Positions 1-9,993 of a stretch of 10,557 nucleotides of DNA are shown here, piece by piece (within the stretch, counting starts at the first letter, position 1; the number at the start of each line of letters is the position of its first letter). The DNA is from an uncultured Oscillospiraceae bacterium. Its GTDB lineage: Bacteria > Bacillota > Clostridia > Oscillospirales > Ruminococcaceae. Both the position numbers and the translations under genes were made by a program. The DNA lies in contig CAKRVU010000021.1 of the NCBI GenBank assembly GCA_934408835.1, positions 1 through 10,557 on the forward strand, given 5' to 3'. The notes beneath the pieces were generated by a model that saw only the letters and a list, made by a program, of their open reading frames with translations, was not told where the DNA came from and ran no database searches.

Positions 1-60
1 GGATAGAGCGACCGCCTCCTAAGCGGTAGGTCGGAGGTTCGAATCCTCTCAGCGACGCCA
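1..60 (+). tRNA. tRNA-Arg (anticodon CCT), 5' truncated by window edge
   Basis: The 3' portion of a tRNA is visible. The anticodon stem ACCGC (11-15) pairs with GCGGT (23-27) around loop CTCCTAA, which puts anticodon CCT at 18-20; this reads AGG arginine codons. The T arm GGAGG (33-37)/CCTCT (45-49) encloses loop TTCGAAT. The 3' acceptor strand CAGCGAC (50-56) is followed by discriminator G and an encoded CCA at 58-60. The 5' acceptor strand and most of the D arm lie outside the window, so acceptor pairing cannot be tested. Confidence 0.95.
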
Positions 61-67
61 AAGGGTT

Positions 68-106
68 TGCCGAAAGCTTTGATTGTTCAAGGCTTTTGGC
101 ATTTTT
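68..106 (+). terminator. Rho-independent terminator of the tRNA gene
   Basis: TGCCGAAAGCTTTGA (68-82) pairs with TCAAGGCTTTTGGCA (87-101) over 15 bp, including two G-T wobbles, around a 4-nt loop. A T-rich tail follows (TTTTTATTTT from 102). It sits 7 nt after the encoded CCA, as expected for the end of a tRNA transcript. Confidence 0.9.
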
Positions 107-146
107 ATTTTGGTTTACGAAACCGGCATTTGAAGCTTCAGTATTA

Positions 147-175
147 TTGACAAAAAGAGCTGCTTATGCTATAGT
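147..175 (+). promoter_or_regulatory. Consensus SigA-type promoter, distal, upstream of glnN
   Basis: The -35 box TTGACA (147-152, perfect) is separated by 17 bp from the -10 box TATAGT (170-175, 5 of 6). Transcription would start near 182. The next plausible start codon on this strand is the glnN ATG at 646. The transcript therefore either has a leader of about 460 nt or is a separate non-coding RNA. Confidence 0.8.
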
Positions 176-181
176 ATGATT

Positions 182-526
182 CAATCAAAGTCCTTTCATT
201 GATTGGAGGACGTCTTTTGAGATAGAAAAGAATCGGCGATTCTATTTCTGTTCCCGGCTGCTGTTTGCGGTCGGGCAATATTTTATAGACGCTGGTGTGC
301 GGCATGTATGGTGGCTTTCCCGCCTCATCGTTTGAAAAGCGCGGGAAAGAGGTGAGGTCGTCGGGGCAGAGAGCTGAAAAAATACCGCTTAGCCGTGATG
401 ATTGGGAAACGTTTGGCATATGGTTGACATGGGGCATTTTCAGGAGAAAGGCTGCCTTGGTGAAAGTTATGACAAGAGCAGGCGAGTCTTTGGATGCCGG
501 AAACTTTTGAACCGGACTTCGGATTG
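182..526 (+). ncRNA. Candidate structured RNA (leader or stand-alone ncRNA), unassigned
   Basis: No protein gene is credible here, but several helices can be drawn. The 5' end CAATC (182-186) plus AAGTCC (188-193) pairs with GGACTT (514-519) plus GATTG (522-526), giving 11 bp that close about 345 nt, and the outer strand begins at the predicted transcription start. Inside lie hairpin 224-249 (11 bp with one bulge), hairpin 253-275 (9 bp with wobbles, loop TGTTT), hairpin 315-349 (perfect 9 bp CTTTCCCGC/GCGGGAAAG), and a longer-range helix GTTTGGCAT (411-419) with ATGCC (494-498) and AAAC (501-504). The 5' strand can instead form a local hairpin, GTCCT (190-194)/AGGAC (207-211), so a switch is possible. 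I do not recognise a known family: RNase P, tmRNA, SRP RNA, T-box and common riboswitch signatures were looked for and not seen. By-eye folding overcalls, so confidence is moderate. Confidence 0.42.
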
Positions 527-552
527 CGCCGCGGTTTTGGGTCGGCTAGACG

Positions 553-582
553 TTGAAATCTGCATATAAAATAATTTAAAAT
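553..582 (+). promoter_or_regulatory. Possible proximal promoter of glnN
   Basis: TTGAAA (553-558, 5 of 6) is separated by 18 bp from TAAAAT (577-582, 5 of 6) in an AT-rich stretch that contrasts with the GC-richer sequence before it. Transcription would start near 589 and give a leader of about 57 nt. If it is real, glnN does not depend on the distal promoter, and the RNA at 182-526 could be an independent transcript. Confidence 0.45.
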
Positions 583-645
583 GTAAAAAGAGGTTATGTT
601 CGATCGCTCACAGATCGTTATCAGCAACAAGGGGAGAGGTATGAT

Positions 646-2724
646 ATGAAAAATTTGGCGCGAAAATTTGGAACTAGTGTGTTTGACGATGTGATCATGC
701 TTGAGCGGCTTCCGGCAACTACCTATCAAAGCTTGCGGCGTTCGATTGATTTGGGTGTGCCGCTGGAGCCGGAGGTTGCCGGCATTGTAGCTGCTGCCAT
801 GAAGGAATGGGCTGTAGAACAGGGGGCGACTCATTTTACCCACTGGTTTCAGCCGATGACAGGGATTACTGCCGGAAAGCACGACAGTTTTTTAACGCCA
901 CAGGGGAACGGCACAGTAATGCTGGAGTTTTCAGGCAAGGAACTGATTAAAGGGGAACCGGACGCATCCTCCTTTCCGAACGGCGGACTGCGAAACACCT
1001 TTGAGGCGCGCGGATATACCGTGTGGGATTGCACCTCTCCGGCGTTTGTGTGGGATAAAACGCTATATATTCCTACCGCTTTTTGCTCCTATAACGGTGA
1101 GGCGCTCGATGCAAAGACGCCGTTGCTCCGCTCCATGGAGGCGCTTTCTGTCCAGGCGCTTCGCATTTTGAGGCTTTTTGGGAACACCAGCGCCAGGCAT
1201 GTGGAGTCGACTGTTGGGGCGGAACAGGAGTATTTTTTGGTGGATCGGGCATTGTATGAGAAACGGCTCGATTTGAAAATCTGCGGACGGACGCTATTCG
1301 GCGCGCAGCCTCCAAAAGGCCAGGAGATGGACGATCATTATTGCGGTCGAATCCGGCTGCGGATTGCCGATTATATGCATCAATTGGATGAGGCGCTCTG
1401 GAAGCTGGGGATTCCATCGAAAACCAAACACAACGAAGTGGCTCCCGCACAGCATGAACTTGCACCGGTTTTTGAGTCCTGCAATGTTGCGGCGGATCAC
1501 AATCAATTAACAATGGATATCATGCGGATGATTGCCAAAAGAAACGGGCTGGCCTGTTTGCTGCATGAAAAGCCGTTTGAACAGATTAACGGTTCGGGCA
1601 AGCACAACAACTGGTCTTTGTCCACCAGCGACGGCGTCAACCTCTTTCATCCGGGAAAGACGCCGTATGAAAACATACAATTTTTGGTTTTTGTCTGCGC
1701 TGTGATCCGGGCAGTCGATCGCTATGCGGGGCTGCTGCGGATGACGTCCGCTTATGTCGGCAACGATCTGCGTTTGGGCGGGCAGGAGGCGCCGCCAAGT
1801 ATCATTTCCATTTTTCTGGGAAATCATTTGACTGATATTTTGACGGCAATCGCGCGGGGGGAAGAAGAACCGCAGACGATGTCTGACGTTTTGGTTACTA
1901 GCGTTGCCACCCTGCCCAACCTCCAAAAGGACGACAGCGACCGCAACAGAACCTCCCCGTTTGCCTTTACCGGCAATAAATTTGAATTTCGGATGCTCGG
2001 TTCCTCCGCTTCCATCTCATCGGTCAATATGGTGCTTAACACCATTGTCGCGGAATCGCTGGAGACGTTTGCCGATCGGCTGGAGCGCTCAAAGGATTTT
2101 GACGCTGAAATACGAAAGATTATTACCGATACTGTCAACCAGCACGGACGGATTTTGTTTAATGGAAACGGATATACCACCGCCTGGCGCGAGGAGGCGC
2201 AGAGGAGAGGTCTTTTGAACATTCCCGACGCGGTGCGGGCGGCTGAGGAGCTGTTGCAAAAAGAAACCGTCCAGCTGTTTGAGCATTTTGGAGTGCTCAG
2301 CCAGGAGGAGTGCCGGGCACGGTATGAAATTATGCTGGAAAAATACTCGAAAACGGTGGAAATAGAGGCGCGCACCATGTTGCAGATGGCCTGCCAGGAG
2401 ATGATGCCTGCGGTAGTGCGGTACTGCGGCGATGTTGCCGATCGGCTCAACAGCCTGGAAGCGGCGGGAATGAACGTTGCCGCGGTGCGCAAGCGTTTGG
2501 AGCAGCTAACTCACAAAATGAATGCGGCATTTGAACGGGTGGACGCGCTGAAACATTCCTTAAATACGCTTCCAAGTCTGTTGCCGGAGCTTGCGGTTTA
2601 TTGCCGGAATGAGATACGCCCGAGAATGGAACAGTTGCGCAGGCAGGTTGATGCGCTCGAGACAGAGATCGAAAAGAAAGAATGGCCGATTCCCGATTAC
2701 ACCGATCTGCTGCATCGGGTATAA
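646..2724 (+). CDS. glnN: Glutamine synthetase type III (GSIII)
   Basis: It makes L-glutamine from glutamate, ammonia and ATP in the cytoplasm, the entry step of ammonia assimilation. At 692 aa it has the usual length of GSIII, far longer than GSI-type GlnA. Family motifs appear in order: HWFQPMTG (66-73), GAEQEYF (191-197, metal/glutamate site), NEVAPAQHE (263-271), [11 protein letters not shown] (314-324, ATP/glutamate region), [11 protein letters not shown] (376-386) and [18 protein letters not shown] (432-449). The last ~150 residues are the helical C-terminal extension typical of GSIII. The start at ATG 646 is supported by a purine-rich GGGGAGAGG (631-639). An ATG at 641 in another frame encodes only two codons and stops at 647-649, overlapping the true start. 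The gene is monocistronic, bounded by a strong terminator. Nitrogen control is likely but no known binding site is recognised. Confidence 0.97.
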
Positions 2725-2746
2725 TCCATCAAACGCGTGATTGCAG

Positions 2747-2787
2747 AAAAAACAGGACAGTGATGTTCAAAATCACTGTCCTGTTTT
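2747..2787. terminator. Bidirectional intrinsic terminator between glnN and the pseudokinase gene
   Basis: AAAACAGGACAGTGAT (2749-2764) and ATCACTGTCCTGTTTT (2772-2787) form a perfect 16-bp stem with a 7-nt loop. Runs of A on the left (2747-2752) and T on the right give a U-tract in both directions. It therefore serves both converging genes: glnN ends at 2724 and the minus-strand gene ends at 2810. Confidence 0.93.
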
Positions 2788-2809
2788 ATAATTCAGTTCT
2801 TGATTTGAC

Positions 2810-3973
2810 CTATCCGCCGAAAATATCGTTTCCAAATACCAGAAAAATGAGAATCAGCGAACTGATGAGAAGGACGCTGAGAGTGATAGAAAGGGCGGTA
2901 ATCATATATTGTTTGGTTTTTGCGCGGTCGTCTTCCTCGCTTTCTTCTTCCGTCTCCTCGGGCGGGTCGAAGTATTTATCGTAGTGAAAGTCGGCCGTCT
3001 TTTGAGAGGCGCGCAAAGGTGTAATAACATCGGCAAAAAAATCGTCCATTGTCTGGGTACGCAGTTTCGCGGAAAGGGTGAGGGCGGACATGATTGCCAG
3101 CGAGACGTTTTTAGGCACGTTCGAGTTCAAAATATCCGGCGCAATCAGATTATCGTTAAACGCGCGGGTGTTCGACGGGGTTGGCATGGTGCCTGTTAAC
3201 GCTTTATACAACACTGCGGCAACCGAATAAACGTCCGTCCATGGACCGCAGGTTTGATTTTCATCATATTGTTCAGGTGCGGCGTAGCCGTCATATAGGA
3301 TTTGCTGGGAAATTTCATTTTTTTGACGAAAAAACGGGGTCAAAAAGCCGGTGATCTTTGGCTTTTGAAGCTCTGTAATATAAATGGTTTCGGGTGAGAG
3401 AGCGCCTTGGATAATGCCAATTTTATGCAAATGAGAGAGGGTTTTAATCAGCTCGATAAACAGCGGGGATGCTTCGGACCAGGAAAGTTCGCCGTAATGG
3501 TCAAAGAGGTATTCCCGCAGCGTGACGCCCTGCACGGTTTCCGACACGGCATACAGGGTATGATTTTCCTCAAAAACGGAGTACACCTGAATCAGGCTGG
3601 GGATTGTTCGGAATTTTGAGAGAGTTTGGTTGAGCGCCAAAAAAGCCTCCATTTGTTCAAGCAAAAGGCTTTTTTTGCCCGGAATTGCCGTGATACTTCC
3701 GTTTGAATTCCGGAGGACAAGAGCGGGTGGGAAAAACTCCTTGATTGTGACAACAACGTCTAAATGATTGTCATAGGCAATATAAATAGCGTGTTCCGCA
3801 TTTTTTTGCAGCAGGTTGCCTAGTTGATAACGGTGTGCAAGAGTGGTGCCAGGCGGGAGATAGTTGGGGTCAGCGGGGACGGGTTTGGCGGAGAAACCGC
3901 AATGAGGGCAGACGGCAGCTGCAAAGTCGATTTCCTTCATACATTGGTGACAACGTTTTTTCGTATCGTTCAT
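2810..3973 (-). CDS. Zinc-ribbon, membrane-anchored protein-kinase-fold protein (predicted pseudokinase)
   Basis: This 387-aa protein has an N-terminal zinc ribbon with cysteines 8, 11, 22 and 25 (CHQC...CPHC). A Ser/Thr kinase fold spans about residues 45-320. An acidic linker follows (337-349, mostly Glu/Asp), then one hydrophobic membrane segment (about 357-380) and a 7-residue tail. Fold markers are kept: beta-3 lysine K78 in TIKEFF, GYAAPEQY (229-236) containing the APE motif, and F-helix D247 in WTDVYS. Catalytic markers are lost: the Gly-rich loop reads LQKNAEHAIY with no glycine, HRD reads Q189-G190-A191, the catalytic-loop Asn is T196, and DFG reads G209-F210-L211. Phosphotransfer is therefore unlikely, and a scaffold or ligand-sensing role at the membrane is inference. 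RBS GGAGGT (3981-3986 on the complement) lies 7 nt before ATG. The gene is monocistronic and divergent from popT. Confidence 0.88.
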   Translation of the reverse strand: MNDTKKRCHQCMKEIDFAAAVCPHCGFSAKPVPADPNYLPPGTTLAHRYQLGNLLQKNAEHAIYIAYDNHLDVVVTIKEFFPPALVLRNSNGSITAIPGKKSLLLEQMEAFLALNQTLSKFRTIPSLIQVYSVFEENHTLYAVSETVQGVTLREYLFDHYGELSWSEASPLFIELIKTLSHLHKIGIIQGALSPETIYITELQKPKITGFLTPFFRQKNEISQQILYDGYAAPEQYDENQTCGPWTDVYSVAAVLYKALTGTMPTPSNTRAFNDNLIAPDILNSNVPKNVSLAIMSALTLSAKLRTQTMDDFFADVITPLRASQKTADFHYDKYFDPPEETEEESEEDDRAKTKQYMITALSITLSVLLISSLILIFLVFGNDIFGG

Positions 3974-5850: not shown

Positions 5851-6138
5851 TTAGACTTCGTTTTCTGCGCTCAATACCTTTTGAAGCTGTTCTGAAATTT
5901 CCGACACGGAAACCAGATTGGTTAGACCGATGGTTGGACCCGCCTTTTCTCCAACGGGTTTTAAGTCTGCGCTGCACACAAATAAATCTGCCGCGCCGGG
6001 AGCCACGTCGTCGATGGTGGAGTGGACGACCTCTACGCCGTCGATCTTTAACTCTTGCAGAGCCTTTTTGATATTCATTTCCATCAGAAACGACGTACCC
6101 AGACCGGAACCGCAAAAACACATAATTTTTTGAATCAT
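5851..6138 (-). CDS. ulaB: PTS IIB component, ascorbate (SgaB/UlaB) family
   Basis: This 95-aa cytoplasmic phosphocarrier passes phosphate from IIA to the incoming sugar at the IIC channel. The N-terminal P-loop-like motif CFCGSGLGTS contains the phosphorylated cysteine, Cys9, at the end of the first strand, as in UlaB (VCGNGQGSS). Length is normal for the family. The ATG is preceded by GGAGGT with a 6-nt gap. It is third in the operon, 29 nt after the IIC gene. The family is named for L-ascorbate, but members carry other sugar acids or polyols, and no ascorbate-catabolic gene is adjacent, so the substrate is open. Confidence 0.88.
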   Translation of the reverse strand: MIQKIMCFCGSGLGTSFLMEMNIKKALQELKIDGVEVVHSTIDDVAPGAADLFVCSADLKPVGEKAGPTIGLTNLVSVSEISEQLQKVLSAENEV

Positions 6139-6167
6139 GACAATACCTCCAATGTATCGTTGGTTGT

Positions 6168-7556
6168 TTATTCGTTTATTTTTTCTTGCTTTTTAGGGGC
6201 AATGAGGTGATAAAGGATGGGAATCAGGAACAAAATGACAATGATAACGAGCAGTCCGTTGCCGGATATGACGCGCGATAGATTGCCAAAGAGAATTCCT
6301 ACTATGGCGAAGTCAGAGTCCGAAAAGGTAGTATTGGCGAAGCCGACCGAGCCTAATGTGGCGTATAATCCGGCAATTAAGAAGGTGGAAACCACTCCAT
6401 GAACAAACGCGCCCGCGACGCATCCGCGAAGCCCGCCGCGAGCGTTGCCGCAAACGCCGGCGGTTGCGCCGCAGAAGAAGTGGAGCACCGCGCCGGGCAA
6501 AATGATGGCGACGGCCAGTCCGGTGCTCCCGAGAATTGCCAGAACGCCCATTGCCAGGATTCCGCCTATAAACGAGCAGATAAAGCCAATTAGAACGGCG
6601 TTAGGAGCGAAAGGAAAGACGATGGGGCAGTCCAGCGCGGGTTTGGCATTTGGAACCAACTTTTCTGAAATGCCCTTGAACGCCGGTATGATTTCATTAA
6701 TCAGCATTCGGACGCCGGCCAGTACGATATAAATTCCGGCAGAAAAGGTGATTGACTGGATGACAGAATACAAGATCCAGTTGGTGCCGGAAAATACCGT
6801 TGCTGCAGCCGGCGCAGCAGAAAACTCTGCAACGCCGGAGACGACAATGTAACACAAAAACATGGCGATGGCGATTGAAACGGTGTTTTCCCGCAAGAAG
6901 GACAGGTGCTTAGGGAAACGGACATCTTCTGTTGAGACAGACTTACCCTTTTTGCCGAACAGCTTGCCGATTTGTGCGCTCAGCCAATAACAGCAGCTTC
7001 CGAAATGCCCCAGCGCCAAGGAGTCGTTCCCGGTGATGGCTCTCATAGTTGGCTGCATGAGAGCCGGGAGCGCCGACATCAAAAGACCCAAGAGCAGGGC
7101 GCCGCCGATGATCATCACGACCTCTGAAGCGCCGGTTAACGACATGATGATTGCGATTAAACATGCCATATACAGCGAATGGTGCCCTGTTAAAAAGATG
7201 TATTTGAAGCGGGAAAAGCGGGCTAAAACAAGATTGGCGCACATTCCCAGTGCAAAGATGGATGCAGTTTGCACCGCAAATTGATTCAGTGCCAACGAGG
7301 TGATGGCCTCGTTATTCGGCACGACGCCTTCCACGCCAAACGCAATTTGGAACAGATCGCCAAAAGGAATGATAGCTTGCTGCACCACGGTAGAGCCGGC
7401 GGTTAAAATTACAAAACCTAGGATCGTTTTGATGGTTCCTGTCAGACAACTTTGAGCTCCTTTTTTCTGAAGCAGAAGACCCAGCAGGGCAATCAGACCG
7501 ACGAAGATGGCAGGCGTTGACAACACCTGTTGGATAAAGGTTAGCACTTCAAGCAT
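6168..7556 (-). CDS. ulaA: PTS IIC component, ascorbate (SgaT/UlaA) family permease
   Basis: This 462-aa integral membrane channel translocates the sugar while IIB phosphorylates it. It aligns in outline with E. coli UlaA: GTIKTILGFVILTAGS (40-55), TGHHSLYM (123-130, UlaA TGH), ALGHFGSC (181-188, UlaA IGHQQQF), and a C-terminal half containing VRMLINEIIPAFKGISEKLVPNAKPALDCP-type sequence that matches UlaA's [23 protein letters not shown] region. Length matches the family. The ATG lies 2 nt beyond the IIA stop codon, with GGAGGT inside the end of the IIA gene, indicating translational coupling. IIC and IIB being separate proteins is the SgaT-type arrangement. Confidence 0.92.
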   Translation of the reverse strand: MLEVLTFIQQVLSTPAIFVGLIALLGLLLQKKGAQSCLTGTIKTILGFVILTAGSTVVQQAIIPFGDLFQIAFGVEGVVPNNEAITSLALNQFAVQTASIFALGMCANLVLARFSRFKYIFLTGHHSLYMACLIAIIMSLTGASEVVMIIGGALLLGLLMSALPALMQPTMRAITGNDSLALGHFGSCCYWLSAQIGKLFGKKGKSVSTEDVRFPKHLSFLRENTVSIAIAMFLCYIVVSGVAEFSAAPAAATVFSGTNWILYSVIQSITFSAGIYIVLAGVRMLINEIIPAFKGISEKLVPNAKPALDCPIVFPFAPNAVLIGFICSFIGGILAMGVLAILGSTGLAVAIILPGAVLHFFCGATAGVCGNARGGLRGCVAGAFVHGVVSTFLIAGLYATLGSVGFANTTFSDSDFAIVGILFGNLSRVISGNGLLVIIVILFLIPILYHLIAPKKQEKINE

Positions 7557-7558
7557 AA

Positions 7559-7999
7559 TCAGACGACCTCCGTTTGAAAAGAGTTGTATAGGGACGCTTC
7601 GTCCTTGGCGGACAGCATTCTTTTCAGTCTGGCATCGTCTGCCAGCAGCTCTGAAAGCGATTCGAGCGTTTGCAAATGGGCGTCCCTGTCCGCAGCTGCA
7701 AGTGCCAGAAACAGACGTACGGGCTTTTCCCGGTGGTCAAAAAGCACGCCCTGACGGAACAGGGTGACGCTAAACTGTGTATGCAGCACGCCTTGTTCCG
7801 GTCTGGCATGTGGAAGCGCCACGTCCTCTGATAGCACGATGTAAGGACCTAGACGCTCGATATTCGCGATGATTTCATCCTTGTACCGCGCTTCTACCGC
7901 GCCGTCCTTTTCCAGTGGAAGGATGGATTGACGGATCGCGTCCTTCCAATCGGCTGCACTGTCTTTGATTTGAACATGTTCCGGTTTGAGAAGTTTCAC
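7559..7999 (-). CDS. ulaC: PTS IIA component, ascorbate/fructose-mannitol type (UlaC-like)
   Basis: This 146-aa cytoplasmic phosphocarrier is phosphorylated by HPr and hands phosphate to IIB. The active histidine is His64 in SEDVALPHARPEQG, and GPYIVLS (51-57) precedes it as in UlaC (GPYFVIAPG). I chose the GTG at 7999: the protein then begins VKLLKPEHVQ, at the usual family start, with AGGGGG about 8 nt upstream. The frame stays open to 8143, but upstream ATG codons lack properly spaced ribosome binding sites, the added residues resemble no IIA domain, and the longest version would run into the hpf terminator. It is the first gene of the IIA-IIC-IIB operon. No dedicated regulator or sugar-acid metabolic gene accompanies it. 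Confidence 0.87.
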   Translation of the reverse strand: MKLLKPEHVQIKDSAADWKDAIRQSILPLEKDGAVEARYKDEIIANIERLGPYIVLSEDVALPHARPEQGVLHTQFSVTLFRQGVLFDHREKPVRLFLALAAADRDAHLQTLESLSELLADDARLKRMLSAKDEASLYNSFQTEVV

Positions 8000-8041
8000 A
8001 AAATAACCCCCTGTTTTTTTCATCTCCCGGGACGGACGTGG

Positions 8042-8099
8042 TTGCCGCTCGGTCATAGCTCCCGCCGTTTCTGGCGGCTGTTTGGCAAGTTCGCGGCAA
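8042..8099 (-). promoter_or_regulatory. Possible structured leader upstream of the PTS operon
   Basis: On the minus strand TTGCCGC (8099-8093) pairs perfectly with GCGGCAA (8048-8042), enclosing an inner hairpin CCGCC/GGCGG (8077-8073 with 8066-8062). It lies between the hpf terminator and the IIA start, where no SigA promoter is visible. It might act in antitermination or mRNA stability; there is no direct support for either. Confidence 0.28.
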
Positions 8100-8122
8100 T
8101 TCGGGTGCGGGATGATTGTGCT

Positions 8123-8166
8123 AAAAAAGGAACTGCCGCACAATGATGGAATGCAACAGTTCCTTT
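8123..8166 (-). terminator. Intrinsic terminator of hpf
   Basis: On the minus strand AAAGGAACTGTTGCA (8166-8152) pairs with TGCGGCAGTTCCTTT (8140-8126) over 15 bp with two G-T wobbles around an 11-nt loop. A T-run follows (complement of the A-tract 8123-8128). It lies about 10 nt past the hpf stop codon and separates hpf from the PTS genes. Confidence 0.88.
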
Positions 8167-8175
8167 GTCTGTTCG

Positions 8176-8712
8176 TTACTCACAAACTAGTAGACCATAG
8201 CCGTTTTTGCGGTTATACAGAACGTGTACAGCGCCGTCTTCGCCAAGGTAGACAAAGAAGGAGTGTCCCAGCATTTCCATCTGTACAATCGCCTCGTCCT
8301 CTGTCATCATCTGCAAATCTACCTGCTTCCGTCTGTGGATCTCTGTGGAAAGAGCGTTTTCTCCGTCTAGTTCTTCGTCCATCAGCGGATTGATTGCGGT
8401 TGCAAGAGAGTCGATTCCTGATTTTCTCTTTTTGTCCACCAGCGAAGTTTTCAGCTTGCGAAGCTTCCGCTTTAAGTCGTCCACTGCGAAATCAATACCC
8501 GGCTCGATTTTGTCGGAAGTGGCTTCGCCGCGGATAAAGCTTCCGGTATTTTTGACGGTGATATCCACCTTATATCCGCCGGTTTGTTTGGCGATGGTGA
8601 CGTCGAAGCTAGCTGTTGATGGCAGCATCTTTTCCACTCGTTTTAATTCCTTTTCGATTCCATCCTTGGTTCCTTGTTTTAACTCAAAGCCCCTTGCTGA
8701 AATGTTGATCAT
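8176..8712 (-). CDS. hpf: Long-form ribosome hibernation promoting factor (HPF)
   Basis: HPF binds the decoding centre of the 30S subunit and, in the long form, dimerises ribosomes into inactive 100S particles in stationary phase. The 178-aa protein has an N-terminal S30AE domain (about 1-98; DFAVDDLKRKLRKLKTS at 74-90) and a linker. The C-terminal dimerisation domain (about 128-178) contains MTEDEAIVQMEMLGHSFFVYL and ends VLYNRKNGYGLLVCE, the usual long-HPF tail. Length is typical of long HPF and excludes the short enterobacterial form. AGGAGG (8726-8721) precedes ATG by 8 nt. The 69-bp gap to ackA holds no convincing terminator or SigA promoter, so hpf is probably read through from ackA. 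Confidence 0.95.
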   Translation of the reverse strand: MINISARGFELKQGTKDGIEKELKRVEKMLPSTASFDVTIAKQTGGYKVDITVKNTGSFIRGEATSDKIEPGIDFAVDDLKRKLRKLKTSLVDKKRKSGIDSLATAINPLMDEELDGENALSTEIHRRKQVDLQMMTEDEAIVQMEMLGHSFFVYLGEDGAVHVLYNRKNGYGLLVCE

Positions 8713-8757
8713 AATGTTTTCCTCCTAAAATCAAATAATATTTTTGCACGATTTTCT

Positions 8758-8775
8758 GATACCCGAAACGGTATC
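8758..8775 (-). repeat. Small hairpin in the ackA-hpf gap
   Basis: GATACC and GGTATC form a 6-bp stem with a 6-nt loop. On the minus strand it is followed by AGAAAATCG, not a U-tract, so it does not look like a terminator. It could be a processing or stability element, but it is short enough to be chance. Confidence 0.35.
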
Positions 8776-8781
8776 CTCTTT

Positions 8782-9993
8782 TTAAGAGCGGTTGTTTTCT
8801 GTAACCAGGCGCTCAGTGTCCTGCGCAATCAGCAGTTCTTCGTCTGTTGGAATAATCCAGACGTCGACGGCGGAAGAACTGTCGGATATTTTGGCTTCCT
8901 GCGCATTTTGTTCTTTGTTTTTCGCCTCGTCCAGCGAGATTCCAAACAGTTCCATATTGCTGCAAACCTTGCTCCGGAGCTGCGCGGAATGTTCCCCGAT
9001 GCCGCCGGTAAAGATAATCGCGTCAAGACCGCCCATGGCCGCCGCATAGGAGCCTATGTACTTTTTGATCTGATACGCTTGAATTTCCAATGTGATTTGC
9101 GCCCGTTCGTTTCCTGATTCTGCCGCTGCACGAAGATCCCGATCGTCACTGCCAACGCCCGATATGCCGAGGTATCCGGATTTTTTGTTCAGCAGCTCGC
9201 TCATCTCGTGCGGGGTGAGGGATTCCTTTTCCATCAGATAGGTGACGGCAGAGGGGTCAACGGCGCCTGAGCGGGTTCCCATCAGCAGGCCGTCCAGCGG
9301 GGTAAAGCCCATGGTGGTATCGAGTGATTTTCCGCCGTCGACAGCGGTGATGGAGGAACCGTTGCCCAAGTGACAAGTAACCATCTTCAATTCGGAGACC
9401 GGTTTCCCGATCAGTTCGGCTGCCCGTCCGCTGACATAGCGGTGAGAGGTTCCGTGAAATCCATATTTGCGGATATGATATTTTTGATAATATTCATATG
9501 GGATTCCGAATAAGAACGCTTTGGGCGGCATTGCCTGATGAAACGCTGTGTCGAACACGACCGTTTGCGGGGTTCCTTCTTCTAATACCTTCTGGCAGGC
9601 ACGGATTCCGAGCACATTTGCCGGATTGTGCAGGGGTGCAAGTTCCGACAAATCGGTGATTTTCTGGATTACCTCATCGGTTACAAGGACAGATTCCGAG
9701 AAGAATTCGGCGCCTTGGACAACTCTGTGTCCGACGGCTGAGATTTCGTCCAATGTCTGAATCACGCCGTATTTTGAGTCTGTGAGCAGTTCGATGACCT
9801 TGAGCAACGCCTCGGTATGGGTGGGGAAGTCGGGGGTATCCGCATAGCGGCGACCATCGTGTGTGGTATGAGAGATTTCACCACTGATACCAATTCGACC
9901 GCAAACCCCTTTTGCCAGGACAGTGCGAGTTTCCATTTGAAACAGTTGATATTTCAAAGATGAACTGCCGGCGTTGATTACTAAAATATTCAT
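8782..9993 (-). CDS. ackA: Acetate kinase
   Basis: It interconverts acetyl phosphate plus ADP and acetate plus ATP, the ATP-yielding last step of fermentative acetate formation. The 403-aa length is standard. Residues equivalent to the Methanosarcina active site are present: Asn7 (VINAGSSS), Arg90 (VGHRVVQG), His122, Asp148 (FDTAFHQ), His180 (YGFHGTSH), Asn211 (HLGNGSS), Arg241 (GTRSGAVDP) and the acidic pair in PTDEE (382-386); FTGGIGEH is also conserved. The ATG is preceded by AGGAGG at good spacing. The phosphotransacetylase gene pta, often adjacent in Clostridia, is not in this window. hpf lies downstream and tmcAL is divergent upstream. Confidence 0.97.
   Translation of the reverse strand: MNILVINAGSSSLKYQLFQMETRTVLAKGVCGRIGISGEISHTTHDGRRYADTPDFPTHTEALLKVIELLTDSKYGVIQTLDEISAVGHRVVQGAEFFSESVLVTDEVIQKITDLSELAPLHNPANVLGIRACQKVLEEGTPQTVVFDTAFHQAMPPKAFLFGIPYEYYQKYHIRKYGFHGTSHRYVSGRAAELIGKPVSELKMVTCHLGNGSSITAVDGGKSLDTTMGFTPLDGLLMGTRSGAVDPSAVTYLMEKESLTPHEMSELLNKKSGYLGISGVGSDDRDLRAAAESGNERAQITLEIQAYQIKKYIGSYAAAMGGLDAIIFTGGIGEHSAQLRSKVCSNMELFGISLDEAKNKEQNAQEAKISDSSSAVDVWIIPTDEELLIAQDTERLVTENNRS

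What the first reader, a model, noticed from the sequence alone, without database searches (positions are those of the whole stretch)
147..645. Possible unassigned structured RNA between tRNA-Arg and glnN
A consensus promoter drives a stretch of ~460 nt with no credible gene. The predicted 5' end (182-193) pairs with 514-526 through 11 bp interrupted by a small internal loop. Inside are four more drawable helices (224-249, 253-275, 315-349, and 411-419 with 494-504). Ends that pair over about 345 nt are typical of large structured ncRNAs and complex leaders. I could not match it to any family I know.
Basis: partly seen in the sequence, partly recalled or inferred. Interest (0 to 1): 0.72.

Follow-up and report, generated by a model that had tools for sequence, protein, structure and literature searches.

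The report
Untranslated leader before glutamine-synthetase gene
A stretch of about 460 bases with no recognisable gene lies before a glutamine-synthetase gene, where relatives usually carry an asparagine-synthesis gene; it is probably an ordinary long mRNA leader, and the large folded RNA first proposed is not supported.

Summary
Confirmed: the promoter (147-175, 11 of 12) and no credible gene in 182-645. The drawn helices are complementary, but the closing helix depends on where the RNA is cut: outer five pairs 0.85-0.90 for 182-526, about 0.26 for 182-550, 0 for 182-645. As good a helix arises in 13 of 400 shuffles. Helix 411-419/494-504 has probability 0 in five folds. No Rfam family fits. 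Covariation could not be tested: no homologous DNA was reached.

New: in 23 of the 30 nearest glnN loci fetched, asnA ends 9-113 bases before glnN; the window has none there. One predicted metagenomic peptide, P0121, matches 337-537 (76% of 67 codons), unchanged for nine codons beyond the window's stop, in a frame without coding signature.

Best reading: a long untranslated glnN leader where asnA was lost. Two terminator-like hairpins inside it (190-211, 253-275) could stop much of the transcription. A decayed asnA scrap (p about 0.01) or a lineage-restricted functional RNA in 337-537 is not excluded.

The parts
147..175 (+). promoter-like site, TTGACA-17-TATAGT, extended -10
   Evidence: 11 of 12, best of 9 sites in 1-3000
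182..645 (+). proposed untranslated leader of glnN, about 464 bases; transcription start inferred from the promoter only
   Evidence: no Pfam match in 4 ORFs, low codon score, no Rfam match beyond chance
190..211 (+). terminator-like hairpin, 7 pairs
   Evidence: pattern scan; 7 such sites in 1-3000 against 3.7 in shuffles
253..275 (+). firm hairpin with a weak T-rich tail, terminator-like
   Evidence: 9 pairs; pair probability 0.96-1.0 in four folds
337..537 (+). part with a relative: the translated stretch matches P0121 at 76% through an in-frame stop (508-510)
   Evidence: AsnA-like DDW...G..L.W motif at about 397-432
   Evidence: probability 0.89-0.98 in four folds, 0.32-0.35 if 361-545 is folded alone
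553..582 (+). second promoter-like site, TTGAAA-18-TAAAAT, nearer to glnN
   Evidence: 10 of 12
646..2724 (+). glnN, type III glutamine synthetase, 692 aa
   Evidence: Pfam GSIII_N, Gln-synt_C, Gln-synt_C-ter; 65-67% to nearest held genomes

Best explanation
The stretch is a long untranslated leader or spacer of glnN, not a free-standing large structured RNA. RNA polymerase would start near 182 from the promoter at 147-175 and run about 464 bases into glnN, with part of the transcription perhaps ending at the hairpins 190-211 or 253-275 (a simple attenuator) and a second promoter at 553-582 serving glnN directly. In relatives glnN closely follows asnA; in this lineage tRNA, promoter and leader stand there instead, so the leader probably arose when that neighbourhood was rearranged. 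Shown: sequence, promoter match, asnA missing from the window, no known family, one relative of 337-537. Inferred: start site, read-through or attenuation, and the history.
For: Promoter 11 of 12 and a second at 10 of 12 near glnN; no terminator-like site between 275 and 645. No Pfam match and no coding signature. asnA directly before glnN in 23 of 30 loci at 60-67% glnN identity, none in the window (best E 0.55). The large fold is not stable in the full transcript, and folding energy is not unusual in 361-600.
Against: Terminator-like sites at 190-211 and 253-275 may stop transcription before glnN. 337-537 resembles P0121, more than a pure spacer needs if P0121 is not a very close species. 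182-526 folds somewhat better than shuffles (z -2.0 to -2.5). No transcript data exist. In 3 of 30 relatives no asnA lies within 1.5 kb upstream, so its absence is not unique.
Confidence: 0.5

Rival explanations
1. 337-537 holds a decayed scrap of asnA, left after most of that gene was deleted; its likeness to P0121 is shared decay in a close species. Compatible with the leader reading.
For: asnA is expected here. On the + strand the frame 361-510 carries DDW...G..L.W of AsnA; 10 of 1000 shuffles reach the profile score; 5-12 of 1500 permutations. P0121 carries it too, and 3 of its 10 weak matches listed in the held loci (E 2.7-7.5) are to DDW motifs of this kind in L092, L165 and L170.
Against: Rests on about 12 residues. 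A frameshift-tolerant alignment of the whole profile is reached by 45 of 400 and 13 of 400 shuffles. The stretch is less than half as long as asnA. No other AsnA piece is recognisable.
Confidence: 0.2
2. A lineage-restricted functional RNA, either a regulatory element in the leader or a separate small RNA, with its core in 337-537.
For: The match to P0121 runs unchanged for nine codons beyond the window's stop, its first 16 residues do not match, and the frame lacks a coding signature. Hairpin 452-481 is firm. z -3.9 at 161-280.
Against: No Rfam match. No homologous DNA in 297, 61 and 280 genomes searched. The core is not unusually stable, and forced changes do not avoid pairs (P 0.58-0.65). 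The distance of P0121's source is unknown.
Confidence: 0.2
3. A small protein gene, 295/304-510, with P0121 as its homologue.
For: P0121 was predicted as a protein; 74% identity over 80%.
Against: Codon score below all 52 gene pieces. The starts do not align, and the similarity continues past the window's stop. Among word-sharing candidates of 38-124 aa only P0121 was found.
Confidence: 0.05
4. A known nitrogen leader: ANTAR-dependent antitermination, a glutamine riboswitch or a T-box.
For: The gene is a plausible target (recalled).
Against: No hairpin with an A1/G4 six-base loop and 4 or more pairs in 101-720 (criterion from passages of PMC8934654). No Rfam match beyond chance.
Confidence: 0.03

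Closest known systems
Long 5' untranslated leaders of bacterial metabolic genes
   Same: promoter about 460 bases before the gene, no coding signature, local hairpins, two of them terminator-like
   Different: no known regulatory element recognised
asnA-glnN neighbourhood of related Clostridia
   Same: glnN of the same type, 60-67% identical
   Different: asnA is missing here; a cut-off tRNA and the leader stand in its place
Large ornate bacterial RNAs (GOLLD, ROOL, OLE; names seen in the listing)
   Same: a stretch of hundreds of bases that could pair end to end; a tRNA nearby (that resemblance is recalled, not tested)
   Different: no Rfam match (that these families are in Rfam is recalled), paired ends not stable in the full transcript, no set of homologues

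Membership tests
ANTAR-regulated leader | hexaloop hairpins with A at 1 and G at 4 | tested here: not met
   none with 4 or more pairs in 101-720; criterion from passages of PMC8934654
Any Rfam 15 family | match to a covariance model | tested here: not met
   58-660: 7 matches, E 2.3-9.8, all below the gathering score; whole window
Large structured ncRNA | end-to-end pairing in the transcript | tested here: inconclusive
   stable only if the RNA is cut at 526; true ends unknown; 13 of 400 shuffles as good
Large structured ncRNA | covarying pairs in homologues | not testable with these tools
   no homologous DNA reached
Large structured ncRNA | own 3' end | tested here: inconclusive
   no terminator-like site from 276 to 645; other ways of making an end not testable
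asnA remnant | AsnA similarity in order along the gene | tested here: inconclusive
   one motif, 10 of 1000 shuffles; whole profile 45 of 400 and 13 of 400
Small protein gene | coding composition, conserved start and stop | tested here: not met
Leader of glnN | transcription from the promoter at 147-175 into glnN | not testable with these tools
   no transcript data

The most novel reading that the evidence does not exclude
337-537 is the core of an undescribed RNA, restricted to a lineage without a held genome, that took over control of glnN when asnA left its neighbourhood; it folds with hairpin 452-481 and not with the helices first drawn.
Probability: 0.15. Interest if true: 0.55.

Novelty: new member of a known kind. 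Interest (0 to 1): 0.22.

Why it matters
As a leader it is one more long 5' UTR of a nitrogen-assimilation gene, and mainly a caution: complementarity drawn over 345 bases does not make a structured RNA. If 337-537 proves to be conserved as RNA, it would be an undescribed regulator of type III glutamine synthetase that arose where asnA was lost.

Tried and rejected
Homologous DNA was sought and not found. 147-645 against 297 genomes of the closest family: 259 of 297 have some match at E up to 1, best 2.4e-5, and those listed are 17-46 bases long; the 30 loci kept gave no long alignment (best nhmmer E 0.009, 48 bases). 340-550 against 61 relatives: 0 of 61 at E 0.001. 361-540 against 280 genomes of the order: 4 of 280 at E 0.01, 22-25 bases each. 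In some searches at most two candidates per genome were scored. Upstream regions of 143 of the 173 loci then held: best blastn E 0.87, no nhmmer match at E up to 5. Phages and plasmids: no match. Viral contigs: none.

A nearer genome was sought with glnN in 394 genomes of the order, 396 and 396 of the family (overlapping draws), 2 of the genus, and two families of 2 and 4 genomes; best identity 67%. Acetate kinase in 147 genomes: 5 of 147 at E 1e-165, 62-63% identity. The nearest glnN proteins besides P0001 (76-77%, P0002 and P0003) lie on contigs I could not reach.

Rejected: ANTAR leader; Rfam families; reverse-strand ORFs as genes; homology with the asnA-glnN spacers of L158 and L162. The test whether P0121's forced changes avoid paired bases was negative. 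An Rfam scan of 20 of the 30 nearest loci showed one glmS and four tRNAs, no leader at glnN. Paper searches (listings and starts of abstracts seen; no paper) showed nothing on this leader; one search showed passages of PMC8934654.

Full report
Observation. The window begins inside a tRNA (Rfam tRNA, 1-57, cut at its 5' end), followed by a terminator-like hairpin at 68-101 and a promoter TTGACA-17-TATAGT with TG before the -10 at 147-175, 11 of 12. glnN, a type III glutamine synthetase, starts at 646. None of the four ORFs of the stretch that I tested has a Pfam match at E up to 10. The two long-range complementarities are in the sequence.

Is it structured? 182-526 folds at -116.8 kcal/mol, z -2.5, 1 of 100 shuffles as good. 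A second run with 200 shuffles gives -2.0, the opposite strand -2.5; 32 other 345-base pieces of the window average -0.55 with sd 1.37, and 1 of 32 is at or below -2.5. In 120-base pieces the excess lies in 161-280 (z -3.9) and 201-320 (-2.1); pieces within 361-600 have -1.6 to +1.1. The closing helix depends on where the RNA is cut: outer five pairs 0.85-0.90 for 182-526, 0.25-0.26 for 182-550, 0 for 182-645; inner six 0.32-0.40, 0.09-0.12 and 0. Helix 411-419/494-504 has 0 in five stretches folded. From the first 15 bases, 13 of 400 dinucleotide shuffles of 182-645 hold a helix of 11 or more Watson-Crick pairs with at most a 2x2 interruption.

Known families and signals. Rfam gives 7 matches in 58-660, E 2.3-9.8, all below the curated scores (whole window). 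ANTAR leaders need six-base loops with A at 1 and G at 4 (passages of PMC8934654); no such hairpin with 4 or more pairs lies in 101-720. Terminator-like sites lie at 190-211 and 253-275, none between 275 and 645 (7 sites in 1-3000 against 3.7 in shuffles). If 253-275 works, much of the transcription from 147-175 would end near 285 and glnN would depend on read-through or on the second promoter-like site 553-582 (10 of 12).

Neighbourhood in relatives. No genome of the window is held. glnN relatives were collected; the best is 67% identical (L149). Of 35 family matches, 30 came with loci, all at 60% or more. In 23 of the 30, AsnA (E at most 1e-100 to that of L149) ends 9-113 bases before the estimated glnN start on the same strand (Pfam AsnA tested for L089 only). 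Two (L158, L162) have it about 550 and 620 bases upstream, two (L168, L170) a diverged one of 33-35% identity, and three (L093, L166, L171) none within 1.5 kb. The window has no AsnA match (one AsnA searched against the whole window, best E 0.55). So the stretch occupies the usual place of asnA.

Remnant of asnA? A profile of 27 AsnA proteins matches the region best on the + strand at a DDW...G..L.W motif; 10 of 1000 shuffles reach the score, as do 5-12 of 1500 permutations. P0121 carries the motif too. A frameshift-tolerant alignment of the whole profile is weak: 45 of 400 and 13 of 400 shuffles reach it with two gap settings. Suggestive, no more.

A relative. The ORF 295-507 found one protein, P0121 (83 aa, one contig of 2803 bases, 7 member sequences, E 8.7e-19), among 2 candidates that share words with it and are of like length. 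By tblastn against the window alone it covers 337-537 with 76% identity over 67 codons, E 5e-31; its first 16 residues do not match. At least 11 of the 177 bases of 361-537 differ. The nine residues after the window's stop are unchanged. In codon usage the ORF (295-510) and its core (361-510) score below all 52 gene pieces, which also trained the score, and 361-537 above about 2% of them. So the similarity reads better as nucleic acid than as protein. Ten base changes that the peptide forces do not avoid paired positions (P 0.58-0.65), so they lend the fold no support. P0121's DNA could not be reached, so synonymous sites, covariation and its distance are unknown. If it comes from a very close species the likeness means little; the 90% cluster that holds this glnN, P0001, has 16 member sequences.

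Spread. No homologous DNA was found in 297 genomes of the closest family, 61 relatives, 280 genomes of the order (these sets overlap and at most two candidates per genome were scored in 17 and 62), upstream of 143 glnN loci, in viral contigs, phages or plasmids.

Verdict. A promoter-preceded untranslated leader or spacer of glnN at the place of a missing asnA is the most economical reading (0.5). A decayed asnA scrap (0.2) is compatible with it. A lineage-restricted functional RNA (0.2) is not excluded, since 337-537 has a relative. The large RNA with paired ends, as drawn, is not supported.

Noticed in passing
window 182-205: The first transcribed bases 182-188 can pair perfectly with 199-205 (7 pairs), a local competitor of the drawn closing helix; its probability is 0 to 0.22 in the folds made.
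   Followed up: partly
upstream of glnN in L089-L092 and L149-L173: asnA (aspartate-ammonia ligase) directly precedes glnN in 23 of 30 loci; two paper searches on nitrogen genes (listings only) showed nothing about this pairing.
   Followed up: partly
L162, between asnA and glnN: An inserted ORF of 200 aa with the look of a sugar O-acetyltransferase (by eye).
   Followed up: no
L158, between asnA and glnN: About 550 bases with short repeats and inverted repeats (by eye).
   Followed up: no
window 2746-2788: Hairpin between glnN and the convergent kinase gene, probably a shared terminator (sequence; met as a chance miRNA match).
   Followed up: no
window 5851-8143: PTS genes IIB, IIC (EIIC-GAT) and IIA in one row on the - strand.
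   Followed up: no
window 8176-9993: A ribosome hibernation factor-like gene (Ribosomal_S30AE) next to acetate kinase, both on the - strand; Rfam shows no raiA-type RNA there.
   Followed up: no
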